Shown here piece by piece: positions 31,770 to 38,926 of a DNA stretch of 64,000 bases. Position numbers and translations under genes: made by a program. Source of the stretch: Anaeromyxobacter dehalogenans 2CP-C (GTDB taxonomy: Bacteria > Myxococcota > Myxococcia > Myxococcales > Anaeromyxobacteraceae). Each line of letters opens with the position of its first letter. Within the stretch, counting starts at the first letter, position 1. The notes under the pieces are model-generated. The model saw nothing but the letters and a program-made list of their open reading frames with translations, was not told the DNA's origin and made no database searches. The DNA is taken from assembly GCF_000013385.1 (NCBI RefSeq), contig NC_007760.1, positions 4,190,001 to 4,254,000 on the forward strand. Direction: 5' to 3'.

Positions 31770-32774
31770 TCAGAGGCGCCAGGCGGGATCGGCGTTCAGG
31801 TCCGGCCCGGCCCGCTCGCCCCGGAGCAGCGCGTGCGTCCCGGCGACGGCGATCATGGCCGCGTTGTCGGTGCAGAGCCTGACCGGCGGGATGAACACGG
31901 ACATGCCCTCGTACTCGGCCGCGCGCGCGGTGGCGGCGGCGCGCAGCCGGCTGTTCGCGGCCACGCCGCCCGCGAGCACCAGCCGCTCGAACTGGAGGCG
32001 GCGCGCGGCGCGGAACGCCTTCTCCACCAGCGCGCGCACGATGGCCTCCTGGTAGCTCGCGCACAGGTCGGCGAGCGCGGGCCCCTCCGGCACGCCGTGC
32101 TTCTTCACGTGGTGCAGGAGCGCGGTCTTGAGCCCGGAGAAGCTGAAGTCGAGGTCGGCGCCCTTCACGATCGCCTTCGGGAAGCGGATCGCGGCCGGGT
32201 CGCCCTCCTTCGCCAGGCGGTCGATGGCGACGCCGCCCGGGTACGGCAGGCCGAGCAGCTTCGCGCCCTTGTCGAACGCCTCGCCGGCGGCGTCGTCGCG
32301 CGTCTGGCCGAGCAGGCGGTAGTCGCCGAAGCCGTGCGCGGCGTAGAGCGAGGTGTGCCCGCCCGACACCACCAGCCCGAGGTACGGGAACGCGGGCGGC
32401 ACCTCCGCCAGGAACGCCGCGACCAGGTGGCCCTCGAGGTGGTTCACGCCCACGAGCGGCTTGCCCCAGGCGAGCGCCAGCGCCTTCGCGGCCTGCACGC
32501 CCACCAGCAGCGCTCCGACCAGCCCGGGCCCGCTCGTCACCGCCACCGCGTCGAGGCCCTCCGGCCCGACCCCGGAGCGCGTCAGCGCCTCGTCCACCAC
32601 GGGCATCACCTGCACCACGTGGTTGCGGCTCGCCAGCTCGGGCACGACGCCGCCCCAGCGCCGGTGGATGTCGATCTGCGTGGACACCACGTCCGACAGC
32701 GCGCGCCGGCCGTCCTCGACGACCGCGGCGGCGGTCTCGTCGCAGGAGGTCTCGATGGCGAGCACTCGAGTCAT
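31770..32774 (-). CDS. tsaD: tRNA N6-threonylcarbamoyladenosine transferase TsaD
   Basis: A 334-residue Kae1/TsaD protein for t6A37 synthesis in ANN-decoding tRNAs. Motifs are VLAIETSCDETAAAVV, NHLEGHLVA (metal His pair), VVSGGHTSLY and the late LCTDNAAMIAVAG. ATG at 32774 follows GGAG and overlaps the stop of an upstream leader frame (ATGA), described separately. Partner genes tsaB, tsaC and tsaE are not in the window. Confidence 0.96.
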   Translation of the reverse strand: MTRVLAIETSCDETAAAVVEDGRRALSDVVSTQIDIHRRWGGVVPELASRNHVVQVMPVVDEALTRSGVGPEGLDAVAVTSGPGLVGALLVGVQAAKALALAWGKPLVGVNHLEGHLVAAFLAEVPPAFPYLGLVVSGGHTSLYAAHGFGDYRLLGQTRDDAAGEAFDKGAKLLGLPYPGGVAIDRLAKEGDPAAIRFPKAIVKGADLDFSFSGLKTALLHHVKKHGVPEGPALADLCASYQEAIVRALVEKAFRAARRLQFERLVLAGGVAANSRLRAAATARAAEYEGMSVFIPPVRLCTDNAAMIAVAGTHALLRGERAGPDLNADPAWRL

Positions 32775-32917
32775 CGGATCTCCATCGCGACGAGACCGTT
32801 GCGAGCGCAGGGGCAGGCGGATGAGCCTGCCCCGGAGCGAGCGGGGGGCCCGGGGGGGCGCGCCGTCTGCGTCCCCCCGGATCCGACTGCCTCGATGGCG
32901 AGGACGCGGGTCGGCAT
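32771..32917 (-). other. Leader ORF repeating the TsaD N terminus
   Basis: A 48-codon frame beginning MPTRVLAIEA, almost the same as MTRVLAIE at the start of TsaD. Its TGA overlaps the tsaD ATG (ATGA). Over 24 aligned bases the two starts share 21, with a three-base insertion in the upstream copy. After residue 10 the frame is low-complexity and Pro/Gly/Ser rich. It contains a perfect 9-bp hairpin, ggggcaggc/gcctgcccc, at 32810-32833. It may be a vestige of an older tsaD start split by a repeat, or a coupling leader. Translation is unproven. Confidence 0.4.
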
Positions 32918-32991
32918 GTCGGCGGCGGAAGGTAACGCGGTCCGGCCCTGCGCGCGAGCGCAACGGTCGCCGGGGCCCGCGTTCGCGGGAG

Positions 32992-35148
32992 CTAGCGGAG
33001 CTGCCGGCCGAGGATGTCGCGGACCGCGCGCGCCTCGGGGCCGGTCGGCGACAGCTCCAGGAACCGCGAGTACGCGGCGCGGGCCTGGGACGCGCGCCCG
33101 GCGCCCTGGTGGATCTCGCCCCGCAGCAGCCAGGCGGGCGCGTAGGCGGGATCGAGCTCGATGGCGCGGTCGAGCGCGCGCACCGCCTCCCCGGAGCGCT
33201 GCGCGTCGTGCAGCGCGCGGGCGAGGCCGACGTAGCCGGGCGCGGTCGGCCGCAGGCCCACGGCGCGCCGGTAGTCGGCGGCGGCCTCGGCGAACCGGCC
33301 CTCCTCGTACTTCCGCGCGGCGGCGGCGAGCAGGCGGCGCGCGTCCGCGGGATCGGGGCGCGCGGCCGCGCCCGGCGCGGACGCCGGCGCGGCGGACGCG
33401 GCGGCCGGCGGCGGTGCGGGCGAAGGCGCGGGCGCCTCGGCGGCGGCGATCGCGGCGGCAGCCTCGGGCTGGGCGGTCTGCGGTGCCGCCGGCGCCTCGA
33501 CCGGCACGGCGGCGGCCGCGACCGGCTGCACGGGCGAGACGGCGGCCGGCGCGGCGGCCTCGGGTGCCGGGGCGTCCGGGGGCGGCCCGGCGCCCGCACC
33601 GCGGCCGCGCAGCGCGACCGCGCCCGCGACCGCCGCGAGGACCAGCACGCCGGCGCCGATGGCGAGCGGCGCGCGCGAGCGGGGCGGGCGACGCGAGGGG
33701 GCCGCCGCGGACGGAGGCGGAGCCGGGAGCACCGGCGCGCCCGCGGCGGGCTCGGGCCGCGCGCGCGGCGCGACCTCCGGCGCGGGCGCGGCGATCGGAG
33801 CGGCGGGCGGCGGCGACCCGGGGGCCGGCCGGCGCGCGGGCGCCGCGAGCGACGGCGGCGGCGGCAGCGACCCGGGCGGCGGGAGCGGCATCGAGAAGCC
33901 GCCCTGCGGGACGAAGCTCGGCGGCGCCGCCGTGGGCGGATCGTGGCGCGCGGGCGCGGGGCGCGGCGGCTGGGCGCTGCGCTCGGGGGCGGCCGGCGCC
34001 GGCGCGTCCGGCGCGGGCACCCCCGGGGCAGCGCGCCCGACCGGCCCGGCGAACCAGTCCACGCCCTGCGGCTCCGGCGTGGCCTCCGCCGGCGCGGGGC
34101 GCGCGGGGCGGCCCAGGCGCGGCGCCTGCTCGACCGGCTCCGGCGCGGCCTCGACCGCGGGCGGCGGCGGCGCGGGGGCCGGCGGCTCGGGCGCGGGCGG
34201 GACCGCCACCTCTTTCACGATGCCCTCGAAGAAGAGCTTCGAGATCACCCCGGCGGCGGCCAGGTCGTCGTAGTCCGCCTCCTCGATCACCTGCTCGAGC
34301 GGGCGCCGCCCGTCGAACAGGCGCAGGAGCGCGTTCACGTCGTCGGGGATCTCCGCCAGCCGCTCGGCCAGCGCGGCGGGGTCGATCTCGAACACGCGGT
34401 CGAGCGAGGGCAGCTGCTCGACGATGCGGCCCCACTCGTCGATGCGGCGCATGCCCTCCATGAGCAGCCCCTGGGTCGAGACCGGGATCCGCTCCTCGCG
34501 CTCGATGGGCTTGAACTCGATCGCGAACTCGCCCTCCTGCCAGTTCAGCAGCCGGTAGAACGCGTTCTCGCCGGCGACCTTGCCGCCCAGCTCGCAGTCG
34601 AGGATGCGGCCGTCCTTGAAGTAGCAGACGGCCTCGAGCCCCCGGCGGCTCTTCACGTGCAGCGCGCCGGACTTCTTGCCCATCTCCAGCGTCTGGACGA
34701 GGTCCACCACGCCCATGTCGGAGAGGTTGCCGGCGAAGCTCGCCTTCAGGTCCTTCTTCTCGAGCCGCTCCTTCTCCTTCTTCTGGAGAAGGATCTTCAC
34801 GCGGGTGACGATCTCCTTGATGTAGATGGGCTTCGTCAGGTAGTCCTCGACGCCCAGCTCGAGGCCCTTCACCTTGTACTCGACCGACTTCTGGCCGGTG
34901 AGGAAGATGAACGGCGTCCCGCGGTGGCGCTCGTCCTCCTTCAGCCGCCGGCACAGCTCGAAGCCGTCCATCTCCGGCATCTTGGTGTCGGAGAGGATCA
35001 GGTCGGGCGGCGAGACCGCGCACCGCTCCAGCGCGTCGCGCCCGTTCACCGCGGTCGTGACGGTGAAGCCCGCCTTCTTGAGCGAGACCTCCATCACCCG
35101 CAGCGACTTGGGGTCGCCATCGACGAGGAGCAGGTGCTGCTTCGCCAA
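32992..35148 (-). CDS. Response regulator with DUF4388, membrane helix and TPRs
   Basis: 718 residues. The receiver domain spans 1-125, with acidic residues Asp10 and Asp12, phospho-acceptor Asp54 ([11 protein letters not shown]) and the conserved Lys in [13 protein letters not shown]4388/PATAN domain follows (about 137-230, [20 protein letters not shown]). A helical part to about 315 leads into some 180 residues of Pro/Ala-rich linker. One membrane helix lies at about 496-515 and TPR repeats at about 590-718. A phospho-receiver on the N side and TPRs beyond a single membrane helix would put the TPRs outside the cytoplasm. No histidine kinase adjoins it. Confidence 0.85.
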
Positions 35149-35285
35149 GCTGCCGCCTTTCCGTACGTTTCCGTACGTCTACACGCGCCGCGATGACGCC
35201 CGGATCTCGCAGCAACGGCCCGGCGGAGTCAAGGCGCGGAACCCGGGGACAGCGCGCGCCCGGCGGCGATCCGGGCGCGGGACGA

Positions 35286-37019
35286 TCAGCGCCCGCGCCG
35301 CTCGGCCCGCCGCGCCTCGAGGTTGCGGAGCTCGCGCAGCGCGTCGGCGTTGCGCGGGTTCGCCGCGACCGCCGCGCGGAACATGCGCTCGGCCTGGCCC
35401 ACGTCGCCTTCCTCGCGCGCCAGCACGCCGGCGACCTGGCACACGCGATCGCTCGCGGCGCCGCCGGGCTCGGCCAGCGCCTGCTCGACGAGCGCGCGGG
35501 CCCGGTCGAGATCGCGGCGCTGCGCGTCGGCCACGTAGGTGTGCGCGAGGGCGGCGAGGTACTCCGGGCGCGGGTCGGCGCGCACCGCCGACTCGTAGAA
35601 GCCGCGCGCGCGCGCCAGGTCGCGCGTGCGCAGGCAGGCCTCGCCCTTCTGGAAGTCCACCCGCGCCGACCCGGCCTGCGCCGGCGTCACGCCGTGCGCG
35701 CCCCGCACCGCGAGGTACGCGGCCCGCTTGCGGTCGTCGGAGAGCGTCTCGTACGCCTCGTTCACCGCGGTGAAGAAGTCGCGCACCTGCTCGGAGAGGT
35801 CGGCGAGCGCCGGCGCGGCGAAGCGGTCGGGGTGGAACTGGCGCGCGAGCTGGAGGAAGGCGCGCTTCACGTCGTCGCGGCCGGCGGTCGGCGCGAGGCC
35901 GAGGCGGGCGAACAGGTCGCGCTCCCGCGCGCGCGGCGCGGCGGCGAGCAGCGCGGCCCGGAGCGCGGCCTCGGGCGAGCCCGGCGGCTCGGCGGCCGGC
36001 GGCGGCGGGGCGGCAGGACCCGCGGGGATCGCGGCCGCGGCGGGCCGCGCCGCCGCGGCGGGGGGCCGCCCGGCGAACGGGCCGATGCCCATGTTGCGCA
36101 TGGCCTGCTGCAGCAGGCGCTGCCGCCGCTCCCGCGCCTCGGCCGGATCGCTGCGGCGCGCCGGGGCGGCGGGCGGCGGGGGCGGCGCGGCGACCGGCGC
36201 GGGCGCCTCGGAGCGCGGGGGCGCGATCGGCCCGGGCTCCGGCTCGATGTCGAGCACCAGGTCCGCCGCGGTCTCGCCGCTCGGCTGCCGCCCGGTGGCC
36301 GGCACCGCCAGCCCGAGCAGCAGCAGCGCGGCGAGCACGGCGCGCGCGCGCTCGGGCTCCACCTCGGTGCCGGCGAAGAAGCCCTCCAGCGTGGCGGACG
36401 GGGAGAGCCGGCGCAGCAGCGCCTGCTCCGCCGCGGTCCAGCGGAAGGCGCCGGCCACCTCCGCGTACCCGGACGCGAGCCGCACCGCCTGGTGCGCCAG
36501 CGGCTGCAGCGCCGACACCACCAGCGCGCCGGCCTGCGGCCGCTCCAGCGCGTCCACGATGGTGCGCAGCGGGGACAGCCGGCTGCCGCGCGTCCACTCC
36601 GGGACCGGCGCGGCGGCGTCGAAGCGGAACGCGCCCGCCTCGAGCGCCGCGATCAGCGCGAAGTAGCCGGCCTGCTGCTCGGCGAGCATCCGGTCCACGT
36701 CGGCGCGCGACACCGCGCCCATCTCCACCAGGAGCTCGCCCTGCGGGCGGCGGGTGGACGCCATGAGGCCCAGGCTGCGCGAGAGCGCGTCGATGTCGAT
36801 GAGCCCCGCCTGCAGGAGCAGCAGCCCGAGCGGACGGAACCCGCTCACCACCTGCGCCCCGACCGGCCGCCCGTCGCGCAGCCACAGCCGCGAGGTGCCG
36901 CCCTCGTGCGCCACCTCGAGCAGGCCGGTGGCGCGCTCGTTCAGCGCCTCGAGCAGGATCGCCGCGAGCGGCGTGCGGGACAGGTCGCCCGGGACCTCGA
37001 GGACGCTCATTCGCGACAT
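35286..37019 (-). CDS. DUF4388 protein with J domain and TPR-like tail
   Basis: About 577 residues. The N-terminal DUF4388/PATAN-like region (about 4-165) opens VLEVPGDLSRTPLAAILLEAL. A helical part, a Pro/Ala linker (about 270-365), an intact J domain at about 370-435 with His396-Pro397-Asp398, and TPR-like helices to the end follow. J domains stimulate Hsp70 ATPase, so DnaK recruitment is a fair inference. ATG at 37019 or 37010 are both possible. Its domain pairing with the neighbouring receiver-DUF4388 protein suggests a shared pathway. Confidence 0.8.
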   Translation of the reverse strand: MSRMSVLEVPGDLSRTPLAAILLEALNERATGLLEVAHEGGTSRLWLRDGRPVGAQVVSGFRPLGLLLLQAGLIDIDALSRSLGLMASTRRPQGELLVEMGAVSRADVDRMLAEQQAGYFALIAALEAGAFRFDAAAPVPEWTRGSRLSPLRTIVDALERPQAGALVVSALQPLAHQAVRLASGYAEVAGAFRWTAAEQALLRRLSPSATLEGFFAGTEVEPERARAVLAALLLLGLAVPATGRQPSGETAADLVLDIEPEPGPIAPPRSEAPAPVAAPPPPPAAPARRSDPAEARERRQRLLQQAMRNMGIGPFAGRPPAAAARPAAAAIPAGPAAPPPPAAEPPGSPEAALRAALLAAAPRARERDLFARLGLAPTAGRDDVKRAFLQLARQFHPDRFAAPALADLSEQVRDFFTAVNEAYETLSDDRKRAAYLAVRGAHGVTPAQAGSARVDFQKGEACLRTRDLARARGFYESAVRADPRPEYLAALAHTYVADAQRRDLDRARALVEQALAEPGGAASDRVCQVAGVLAREEGDVGQAERMFRAAVAANPRNADALRELRNLEARRAERRGR

Positions 37020-37147
37020 CTTACCGCGGCCCGGCGCCGTACGCTCCCGGTGCGGCCGCGGGGGCGTTTTCGGTTTGACCCGGCCGCGCCCGCGCCGCAG
37101 AGTCGGCGACCGGGGCGGCACCGGGGATCCACCTGGGACGGGTCGGC

Positions 37148-38089
37148 ATGGGCGGCATCGGCATCGTGAACAACCCGCGATCGCGGCGGAACCGGCGCGA
37201 TCCGCGCCTGGGCGACCGGCTGCGCGCGCGGCTGGGCGACGCGGGCGAGGTGGTGGACGCCGCCACGCCCGACGAGCTGGCCCGCGCCGTGGAGCGGTTC
37301 CGGGCGCGCGGGGTGGACGTGCTCGGGATCGGCGGCGGCGACGGCACCGCGCACGTGGTGCTCTCGGCCTTCGCCGACGCGTACGGCGACGCGCCGCTGC
37401 CGCAGGTGCTGCTCCTGCGCGCCGGGGCCATGAACACCGTGGCGCACGGCAACGGCGTCCGCGGCGGCCCGGAGGCCATCCTCCGCGCGGTGCTGGGCCG
37501 CCGCGCGCAGGGGATTCCCCTCGCCACCGTCGAGCGCGACCTGCTCCGCGTCGAGGCGGACGGCGTCCCCCCCCGCCACGGGTTCATCTTCGGCACCGGC
37601 GCGGTGGTGGCGTTCCTGGAGGCCTACTACGCGACCGGCCGCCCCTCCCCGCTGACCGCGGGGCTCCTGCTCGCGCGCGCGGCCGGCTCGGCGCTGGTGC
37701 GCGGCCCGTTCGCGGCGTCGCTCACCCGCCGCGATCCGCTGCGGGTGTGGAGCGACGGGGAGGAGTGGACCGACGCGCGCTACCTCGCGCTCGTGGCCGG
37801 CTCCACGCCGGACATCGGCTTCGGCTTCCGGGCGTTCCACCGGTGCGGCGAGCAGCCCGGCTCCTTCCACGCGGTCGGGGTCACCGCCAGCCCGCTGCAG
37901 ATCGCGCTCGCGCTGCCGCGCATCCGCGCGGGGCGGCCGTGGAAGCGGCGGCACGCGCAGGACGAGGTGGCCCGCGAGCTGCGCGTGGAGGGCGACGGCC
38001 TGCGCTACACGGTGGACGGCGACCTGTACGGCCCGGTGCGGGCGGTGCGGATCTCGACCGGTCCGGGCGTCGAGCTGGTGGTGCCCTGA
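37148..38089 (+). CDS. Diacylglycerol kinase-family lipid kinase
   Basis: A 313-residue protein with the DAGK catalytic fold. It has NNPRSRRNRRDPRL near the start, the ATP-site motif VLGIGGGDGTAHVVL, and a late FGTGAVVAFLEAYY region. Such enzymes phosphorylate diacylglycerol or sphingoid bases. The acceptor is unknown here. It is divergent from the J-domain gene and is followed closely by the PP2C gene. Confidence 0.85.
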   Translation: MGGIGIVNNPRSRRNRRDPRLGDRLRARLGDAGEVVDAATPDELARAVERFRARGVDVLGIGGGDGTAHVVLSAFADAYGDAPLPQVLLLRAGAMNTVAHGNGVRGGPEAILRAVLGRRAQGIPLATVERDLLRVEADGVPPRHGFIFGTGAVVAFLEAYYATGRPSPLTAGLLLARAAGSALVRGPFAASLTRRDPLRVWSDGEEWTDARYLALVAGSTPDIGFGFRAFHRCGEQPGSFHAVGVTASPLQIALALPRIRAGRPWKRRHAQDEVARELRVEGDGLRYTVDGDLYGPVRAVRISTGPGVELVVP

Positions 38090-38113: not shown

Positions 38114-38142
38114 TTGACCGCTGAGGGGGTCGCGACTAACCT
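38114..38142 (+). promoter_or_regulatory. Weak candidate promoter ahead of PP2C gene
   Basis: TTGACC (38114-38119), a 17-nt spacer and TAACCT (38137-38142). The -35 is good and the -10 poor. If used, the leader before ATG 38156 would be only a few bases. Confidence 0.3.
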
Positions 38143-38155
38143 TCCCGGTCCCACC

Positions 38156-38926
38156 ATGCGCCTGAGCCACGCGGGAGCGAGCGACGTCGGGCGGAAGCGC
38201 GCCCACAACGAGGACGCCTTCCTGCTCCTCCCGGAGGAGCAGCTCTACTGCGTCGCGGACGGGATGGGCGGCCACGCCTCCGGCGAGGTGGCGGCCCGCA
38301 TCGCGGTCGAGGAGATGGCCGAGTTCTTCCGGATCACCGGCCGCGACGACGAGGCCACCTGGCCCTTCCGGCCGGACCCGGCCCGGGACGCCGACGAGAA
38401 CCGGCTCCTCACCGGCGTGAAGCTCGCGAACCTGCGCATCCACGAGCGGGCCCGGGCCGACGAGCGGCTCCACGGCATGGGCACCACGCTCGTGGCGGCG
38501 CAGTTCCCCCGCGACGGGCGCGAGGTGCTGGTCGGCCACGTCGGCGACAGCCGCGCGTACCTGTTCCGCCGCGGGGCGCTGCGACAGCTCACCGAGGACC
38601 ACTCGCTGCTCAACGACTTCCGGCGCACGCGCCAGCTCACGCCCGCCGAGATCGAGGCGTTCCCGCACAAGAACGTGATCGTCCGCGCGCTCGGCATGAA
38701 GGAGTCGGTCGAGGTGGACCTGCTCCGCGAGCCGCTCGAGGACGGCGACGTGGTGCTGCTCTGCTCCGACGGCCTGTCCGGGATGGTGCCGGACGCGCGC
38801 ATCGCCGAGGTGCTGCGCGCGGTGCCCGGCGACCTCCGCCGCGCGGCGCAGGCGCTGGTGGACGCCGCGAACTCCGCCGGCGGCGCCGACAACGTGACGT
38901 GCGTCCTGGTGCAGGCCCAGGGCTAG
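38156..38926 (+). CDS. PP2C-family Ser/Thr phosphatase
   Basis: A 256-residue metal-dependent phosphatase with all standard motifs: RAHNEDAF, VADGMGGHASGE, GMGTTLVAA, VGHVGDSRAYLF, LCSDGLSG and GADNVTCVLV. The acidic residues that bind two Mn or Mg ions are present. It could counter the Ser/Thr kinase encoded at 47911-49311, but they are 9 kb apart, so this is only a suggestion. Confidence 0.93.
   Translation: MRLSHAGASDVGRKRAHNEDAFLLLPEEQLYCVADGMGGHASGEVAARIAVEEMAEFFRITGRDDEATWPFRPDPARDADENRLLTGVKLANLRIHERARADERLHGMGTTLVAAQFPRDGREVLVGHVGDSRAYLFRRGALRQLTEDHSLLNDFRRTRQLTPAEIEAFPHKNVIVRALGMKESVEVDLLREPLEDGDVVLLCSDGLSGMVPDARIAEVLRAVPGDLRRAAQALVDAANSAGGADNVTCVLVQAQG

What the first reader, a model, noticed from the sequence alone, without database searches (positions are those of the whole stretch)
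32992..37019. Paired DUF4388 proteins linking phospho-relay, membrane, TPR and J domain
Two adjacent genes both carry DUF4388/PATAN-like domains and TPR tails. One adds a receiver and a membrane helix, the other a J domain. This suggests a signalling scaffold that recruits Hsp70 on phosphorylation. The topology of the first, with TPRs beyond a membrane helix, is odd.
Basis: inference. Interest (0 to 1): 0.55.

Follow-up and report, generated by a model that had tools for sequence, protein, structure and literature searches.

The report
Signalling gene pair with Hsp70-recruiting partner
Two neighbouring myxobacterial genes encode a membrane-anchored signal receiver and a protein that should call in the Hsp70 chaperone; the pair is kept together in most related genomes where both were found, and its parts occur fused in single proteins elsewhere, which suggests a signal-directed chaperone device of unknown target.

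Summary
P1 (32992-35148) is receiver-DUF4388-linker-one membrane helix-TPR; P2 (35286-37019) is DUF4388-J domain-TPR. A membrane-like helix is present in 57 of 68 P1 relatives. Two new points: 9 of 12 hand-picked related loci encode receiver, DUF4388, J and TPR in one ORF (Pfam confirms the 5 scanned); and the helical insertion in P2's DUF4388 resembles the MshEN module of pilus ATPases, with degraded cyclic-di-GMP motifs. Hsp70 recruitment is likely. Dependence on phosphorylation is doubtful: 20 of 80 receivers carry Glu at the acceptor, and P1 or P2 is missing in some relatives. A link to type IV pili or exopolysaccharide is analogy; PilB co-occurrence is positive but follows genome reduction. 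Known parts, new combination.

The parts
32992..35148 (-). P1, 718 aa: receiver (res. 7-118), DUF4388 (139-239), mixed helix/strand C-lobe (about 250-313), Pro/Ala-rich linker, one membrane-like helix (495-513), Pro/Ala-rich segment, TPRs (about 637-709)
35286..37019 (-). P2, about 577 aa from ATG 37019 (or ATG 37010): DUF4388 with helical insertion, helical C-lobe, Pro/Ala-rich linker, J domain with HPD, weak TPR tail
36666..36839 (-). MshEN-like four-helix module inside P2's DUF4388 (residues 61-118 counted from ATG 37019)
35715..35918 (-). J domain of P2 (residues 402-469 of the ORF from 37121), HPD present
33610..33666 (-). membrane-like helix of P1 (residues 495-513)
31770..32774 (-). tsaD (start read as MTRVLAIETSC at 32774), next gene downstream of P1
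30442..31296 (-). rsmA (ksgA); context only
37148..38089 (+). diacylglycerol-kinase-type gene, divergent from P2; context only
38114..38926 (+). PP2C-type protein phosphatase gene; context only

Best explanation
P1 and P2 are two halves of one signalling device that places Hsp70 activity at a site on the inner membrane. P1 is the anchor: its receiver and DUF4388 (PATAN-type) part is in the cytoplasm, one helix crosses the membrane, and the TPR tail reaches the periplasm. P2 is a J-domain co-chaperone without the DnaJ client domains: its DUF4388/MshEN-like head and TPR tail choose place or client, and its HPD J domain triggers Hsp70 there. P2 meets P1 or a shared partner through the DUF4388 heads. 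[quoted passage not shown] Shown here: domains, HPD, hydrophobic helix, conserved order, single-ORF fusions, MshEN-like module. Inferred: membrane insertion, P1-P2 contact, which Hsp70, receiver control, and the client.
For: Domains and coordinates. P2 directly upstream of P1, same strand, in 106 of 112 Myxococcia genomes with both located (rows, which examined 147 genomes of the class among 193). Receiver-, DUF4388-, J- and TPR-type matches in one ORF in 9 of 12 newly fetched non-own loci; Pfam finds all four in the 5 scanned (L219, L220, L223, L224, L225). HPD in 16 of 16. Helix and flank charge bias. MshEN-like insertion: VIA Z 10.8, rmsd 1.3 over 57 residues to PilF GSPIIB and Z 10.7 over 58 to MshE; phmmer E 6.4e-7 to the whole PilF chain; hhalign 96.7% to Myxococcota PilB N-termini, best of 30 column-shuffled controls 1.4%. 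The genome has 9 long Hsp70 matches among 16. P1 and PilB co-occur more than by chance (p 3e-5), though this is confounded. Literature (passages only): PATAN response regulators bind PilB/PilC and the DnaK1/DnaJ3 system binds PilB in cyanobacteria (PMC12288463; PMC9239167); StkA and SglK Hsp70s affect exopolysaccharide and S-motility in M. xanthus (PMC4319316; PMC8265645).
Against: P1 and P2 are not strictly co-dependent. In my lists 7 genomes have P1 but no strong P2 row (G003, G027, G028, G031, G032, G136, G144) and 6 the reverse (G013, G016, G018, G021, G023, G130); some are draft genomes, but G003's P1 neighbourhood lacks P2 and in genus g6 P1 is missing or a relic. G028's P2-type ORF has no J match. 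Fusions are paralogues, not replacements: G024 has P1, P2-type pieces and a fusion. None of 38 more distant P1 loci (L124-L161) shows a J gene beside P1, some being cut by contig ends. Fusion neighbours scanned include kinases, no pilus genes. The PilB association follows genome reduction: all 13 P1-less genomes over 3.0 Mb and at least 90% complete keep PilB, and 5 complete genomes with P1 have no PilB over the cut-off. Mirror-tree partial correlations were non-specific. The best single-domain phmmer E to PilF is only 0.086, and the structural tool warns that Z under about 13 for helical bundles can be a common arrangement.
Confidence: 0.45

Rival explanations
1. Two paralogous DUF4388 proteins that merely stay in one conserved chromosomal neighbourhood (P2-P1-tsaD-rsmA) and act separately; P2 is a general co-chaperone and P1 an independent regulator.
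For: Each occurs without the other in some genomes; the neighbours tsaD and rsmA are housekeeping genes that also stay together in many loci; mirror-tree signal not specific.
Against: Order kept in 106 of 112 genomes with both, across several families of the class, and the four domain types also occur in one ORF.
Confidence: 0.25
2. The receiver is not a phosphorylation switch but a docking or constitutive part; localisation is set by the DUF4388/MshEN-like heads or by partner binding.
For: Acceptor Glu in 20 of 80, second pocket acid missing in most, receiver residues lost in some distant relatives; P1 of G011 lacks the receiver part. No histidine kinase among the five neighbours scanned by Pfam.
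Against: Acceptor Asp in 55 of 80, T/S in 72 of 80 and K in 76 of 80 at the two switch positions; the window protein has D10, D12, D54, T84, K106.
Confidence: 0.4
3. P2 is a cyclic-di-GMP-gated co-chaperone: the MshEN-like module binds the nucleotide and controls the J domain.
For: Fold, 24-5-24 spacing and profile match to MshEN; a sibling DUF4388 gene in the same genome (L218) has 20 of 22 strict motif positions.
Against: P2 has 16 of 22. Both halves of P2 fail the relaxed motif quoted in PMC5013675, by one position each, and the first motif residue is Pro, not Arg, in both. L218's halves fail the relaxed motif too.
Confidence: 0.15

Closest known systems
PATAN-domain CheY-like response regulators PixE/PixG/LsiR of Synechocystis
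   Same: receiver plus PATAN-type domain; PixG and PixE are said to bind PilB1 (PixG also PilC) and steer type IV pili (passages, PMC12288463, PMC9090330)
   Different: no membrane helix, TPR tail or adjacent J-domain gene is described in the passages seen
Cyanobacterial DnaK1/DnaJ3 (TPR-bearing DnaJ) chaperone system
   Same: a J-TPR protein plus a dedicated Hsp70 that touches a surface machine (PilB, Hfq) and affects polysaccharide (passages, PMC9239167, PMC12288463)
   Different: no DUF4388 or receiver described on DnaJ3 in those passages; different phylum; homology beyond J and TPR not tested here
Myxococcus xanthus Hsp70s SglK and StkA
   Same: Hsp70s with roles in exopolysaccharide and S-motility in the same class (passages, PMC8265645, PMC4319316)
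   Different: no J partner named in the passages seen; the link to P2 is only a proposal
MshEN (T2SSE_N) domain of MshE/PilF/PilB
   Same: fold, 24-5-24 spacing and profile similarity of the P2 insertion
   Different: sits inside a DUF4388, only the N-terminal four-helix half, ligand residues degraded in P2
PilZ proteins with DnaK or DnaJ domains in M. xanthus
   Same: signalling domain joined to chaperone domain; four such proteins stated in PMC8316039 (passage)
   Different: PilZ instead of DUF4388/receiver

Membership tests
DUF4388 (PF14332, PATAN-type) | Pfam gathering score 25 bits | tested here: met
   P1 86.2 bits, P2 54.0 bits
Response regulator receiver (PF00072) | profile match and receiver fold | tested here: met
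   92.4 bits vs 30.2; VIA Z 23.1, rmsd 1.1 over 129 residues to 3crn
Response regulator receiver (PF00072) | acceptor Asp, acidic pair, Thr/Ser and Lys | tested here: inconclusive
   window: D54, T84, K106 present, pocket D10-G11-D12 lacks the usual second acid; 20 of 80 relatives have Glu at the acceptor. Roles of these positions are recalled, not from a call
J-domain protein (PF00226) | profile match with HPD | tested here: met
   48.3 bits vs 27.8; HPD invariant in 16 of 16
J-domain protein (PF00226) | stimulates an Hsp70 ATPase | not testable with these tools
   bench assay needed
Class A/B DnaJ | zinc-finger and DnaJ C-terminal client domains | tested here: not met
   no such Pfam family at E<=0.1 in P2; so it would be type III/class C (class names recalled)
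MshEN module | four-helix N-terminal half fold and profile | tested here: met
   Z 10.8, hhalign 96.7%, phmmer whole-chain E 6.4e-7, best domain 0.086
MshEN c-di-GMP receptor | double 24-residue binding motif | tested here: not met
   16 of 22 strict positions; both halves fail the relaxed motif of PMC5013675
PATAN regulators of type IV pili | binding to PilB/PilC | not testable with these tools
DnaK1/DnaJ3-type pilus chaperone system | J protein orthologous to DnaJ3, Hsp70 partner, PilB contact | not tested
   no DnaJ3 sequence fetched

The most novel reading that the evidence does not exclude
Two-component control of Hsp70 at a molecular motor: a receiver-PATAN anchor and a PATAN/MshEN-J-TPR co-chaperone, found as a gene pair here and as one polypeptide elsewhere, use a PilB-like head to bring Hsp70 to the pilus motor or a related envelope ATPase, so that a phospho-signal (and in some relatives perhaps cyclic-di-GMP) decides when the machine is remodelled.
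Probability: 0.18. Interest if true: 0.75.

Novelty: new variant of a known kind. Interest (0 to 1): 0.5.

Why it matters
It would give a direct physical route from a two-component receiver to Hsp70 placement. I found no paper on such a device in the held library: J-domain protein, response regulator, receiver domain and Hsp70 together returned none, and the listings for DUF4388 or PATAN domain, PATAN+Myxococcus xanthus, PATAN+DnaJ (10 of 13 listed) and MshEN+PATAN, with the passages read, showed none. It would also make the question of what the Hsp70s SglK and StkA do in myxobacterial motility more testable by offering candidate J partners, and it gives the helical insertion of one PATAN-type domain an identity (MshEN-like), which would suggest why such proteins meet pilus ATPases.

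Tried and rejected
Strict co-dependence of the pair: rejected, each occurs alone in some genomes. Co-occurrence of P1 (E<=1e-40) with PilB over the curated cut-off, counted by me from the two tables: 143 of 156 genomes with P1 and 23 of 37 without have PilB (p 3e-5); at least 90% complete, 123 of 128 and 14 of 21 (p 2e-4). But all 7 complete genomes without both are 3.0 Mb or smaller, all 13 complete P1-less genomes over 3.0 Mb keep PilB, relatedness was not corrected for, and the P1 threshold lets in about nine genomes whose only match is probably a paralogue; I do not count it as support. Mirror-tree test on 27 loci: partial correlation P1-P2 0.63, but P1-TsaD 0.66 and P2-RsmA 0.65 were as high; the P2 row of L119 is only a C-terminal fragment; inconclusive. 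Sigma-70 promoters and terminators: none found in 32700-37300, uninformative at this G+C. P1 model against PDB: the rows covered the receiver only, so the DUF4388 part was barely tested. Foldseek on the P2 head gave no match with E <= 0.001; the MshEN rows have E 0.075 and above, probability up to 1.00. Neighbours of fusions: 10 ORFs of L219/L221 and 9 of L223-L225 scanned, out of 53 predicted ORFs in those five loci (fusions included), no pilus genes. M. xanthus orthologues could not be named: strain DK1622 is not among the 80 loci listed, and whether MXAN_3211 or MXAN_4965 (PATAN proteins found by co-occurrence with SgmX, PMC11580455, passage) is P1 or P2 is unknown. The hhalign test used inserts picked partly by motif position, which favours the right register; the structure match and phmmer do not share that bias.
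Full report
The setting. The window lies in a single-contig genome of 5.01 Mb, about 70-78% G+C. The nearest named record is an Anaeromyxobacter sp. MAG whose P1 head is 84% identical; I infer an Anaeromyxobacter-like host.

What is there. P1 (32992-35148, minus) has a receiver, DUF4388, a long Pro/Ala-rich linker, one hydrophobic 19-mer and TPRs. P2 (35286-37019, minus) has DUF4388, a Pro/Ala-rich linker, a J domain with HPD and a weak TPR tail. The gap between them is 137 bases (coordinates).

Conservation of the pair. I compared the places of the best P2-type J-TPR match and of the P1 head match in class Myxococcia, of which 147 genomes were examined among 193. My lists hold 118 genomes with the first and 119 with the second; 112 have both. 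In 106 of 112 P2 is directly upstream on the same strand, 50-1019 bases apart between the matched parts, median 228. The six exceptions: G006 and G029 (same contig, rearranged), G024, G036, G040 and G141 (different contigs, so partly a question of assembly). Seven genomes have P1 only and six P2 only in these lists. In many loci tsaD and rsmA follow P1. In 38 more distant P1 loci (L124-L161; titles name Polyangium, Sorangium, Kofleriaceae and others, class not checked) P1 often still precedes tsaD, but none shows a J gene beside P1; some are cut by contig ends. So P1 next to tsaD looks older than the pair; this is inference. In several Myxococcus/Archangium-type genomes (names) P2 is a giant ORF, up to about 2,200 aa, with long charged repeats between the head and the J-TPR end; in others of the same family the open frame is shorter. 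The one giant scanned by Pfam has only a sub-threshold DUF4388 match (20 bits, cut-off 25; L061).

Losses. G003 has P1 and no P2 beside it or at ortholog strength elsewhere. In genus g6 (G013, G018, G021, G023) P2 is followed by tsaD, with P1 gone (L231) or reduced to a weak match of about 70 residues (L232-L234). In G011 the P1 match starts after the receiver, some 80 bases behind the end of P2. In G028 the P2-type ORF has no J match. The pair is a strong habit, not an obligate unit.

Fusions. One search fetched 12 new non-own loci chosen for strong J-TPR matches (a thirteenth, L078, was already held and is a P2-P1 pair, not a fusion). Nine of the 12 have one ORF with receiver-, DUF4388-, J- and TPR-type matches (L219-L225, L229, L230; the DUF4388-type match of L229 is weak). 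Pfam confirmed all four domains in the five I scanned (L219, L220, L223, L224, L225). This is a hand-picked sample: it shows that the fusion exists, not how common it is. G024 has a fusion besides P1 and P2-type pieces, so fusions are paralogues. The window genome has two more J-bearing DUF4388 proteins: L214 (DUF4388-J-TPR) and L213 (DUF4388 clear; J 26.2 bits against a cut-off of 27.8, receiver 21.3 against 30.2).

The membrane helix. 57 of 68 P1 relatives (window included, one duplicate locus left out) with a tail of at least 140 residues have a membrane-like 19-mer; 12 of 1360 shuffled tails do. The N-side flank has more K/R in 40, equal in 13 and fewer in 4 of the 57. This predicts cytoplasmic receiver and DUF4388, and TPRs outside. 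The hydrophobicity scale was typed from recall.

The receiver. In the window D10, D12, D54, T84 and K106 are present, but the second pocket position is Gly. Over 80 aligned P1 ORFs (window and one duplicate locus included) the acceptor is Asp in 55 and Glu in 20. Phospho-control is possible here, but it cannot be the general rule.

The P2 head. AlphaFold2 gave pLDDT 92.1 and pTM 0.86. The beta core is interrupted by four helices (residues 64-124). These match the c-di-GMP-binding N-terminal half of pilus ATPases: PilF GSPIIB Z 10.8, rmsd 1.3, 57 residues, 37% identity; MshE Z 10.7, rmsd 1.3, 58 residues, 28%; PilB of Xanthomonas about 8; unrelated helical rows (fumarases) about 7. The tool warns that helical matches under about 13 can be a common arrangement. 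Foldseek's own E-values are weak (0.075 and above), probability up to 1.00. phmmer finds the PilF chain at 6.4e-7, summed over three weak domains (best alone 0.086), and MshE at 0.049. hhalign of 31 inserts against twelve Myxococcota PilB-type N-termini gives 96.7% over 52 columns; 30 column-shuffled controls reach at most 1.4%, two unrelated alignments 0.2 and 0.5%. The 24-5-24 spacing is exact in the window, but ligand residues are degraded: 16 of 22 strict positions, against 22 for MshE and 20 for the sibling L218; both halves of P2, and both of L218, fail the relaxed motif of PMC5013675. I file the module as MshEN-like, not as a c-di-GMP receptor. A helical insertion in PATAN is known by title (Makarova 2006, seen only as a reference); I found no statement in the passages read that it is MshEN-like. 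PMC5013675 does state that MshEN occurs with receivers and that M. xanthus has 22 MshEN-encoding genes (passage), so such proteins may already be among its counts.

How it probably works. A J domain with HPD means Hsp70 (established knowledge). The genome has 9 long Hsp70 matches, so a dedicated partner is possible. P1 fixes a place in the membrane; P2 is likely to reach that place through the DUF4388 heads and there switch Hsp70 on for a client. In cyanobacteria PATAN response regulators bind the pilus motor, and a separate TPR-bearing J protein with DnaK1 also meets it and affects polysaccharide (passages). In M. xanthus two Hsp70s affect exopolysaccharide and S-motility (passages). Together with the PilB-like head this makes the pilus motor or the exopolysaccharide pathway the first guess for a client, at perhaps one chance in three. 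The tests here do not settle it: P1 and PilB co-occur (143 of 156 genomes with P1, 23 of 37 without, p 3e-5), but the contrast comes from small genomes, since all 13 nearly complete P1-less genomes over 3.0 Mb keep PilB; and the fusion neighbours scanned hold kinases and metabolic genes but no pilus genes.

Verdict.

Noticed in passing
L218:4028-5224 (window's own genome, about 3.08 Mb): Another DUF4388 protein whose helical insertion keeps 20 of 22 strict MshEN motif positions, more than P2, though each half still fails the relaxed motif.
   Followed up: partly
L061:9237-14903, L062, L063, L114-L118: Myxococcus/Archangium-type P2 relatives with very long open frames (about 1390-2085 aa in these loci); the translated one (L061) carries long EARLAEEARL-type repeats between head and J domain.
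   Followed up: no
L231-L234: In one genus P1 is gone or a short relic between P2 and tsaD.
   Followed up: partly
L056, L057: Rearrangements beside P1 in two close relatives: P2 and the DAGK gene in changed order and strand in G006, P2 missing and DAGK turned in G003.
   Followed up: partly
window 35159-35178: Tandem ten-base repeat ACGTACGGAA, twice, just upstream of P1's TTG start.
   Followed up: no
L219:9262-11121, L221:8982-10895: Ser/Thr kinase with PEGA domain directly downstream of the receiver-DUF4388-J-TPR fusion in two genomes.
   Followed up: no
L067:9366-10673: P2-type ORF without a J-domain match in a single-contig genome.
   Followed up: no
L115: A record titled Comamonas sp. 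carries the myxobacterial P2-P1-tsaD-rsmA order; the title looks like a mislabelled genome.
   Followed up: no
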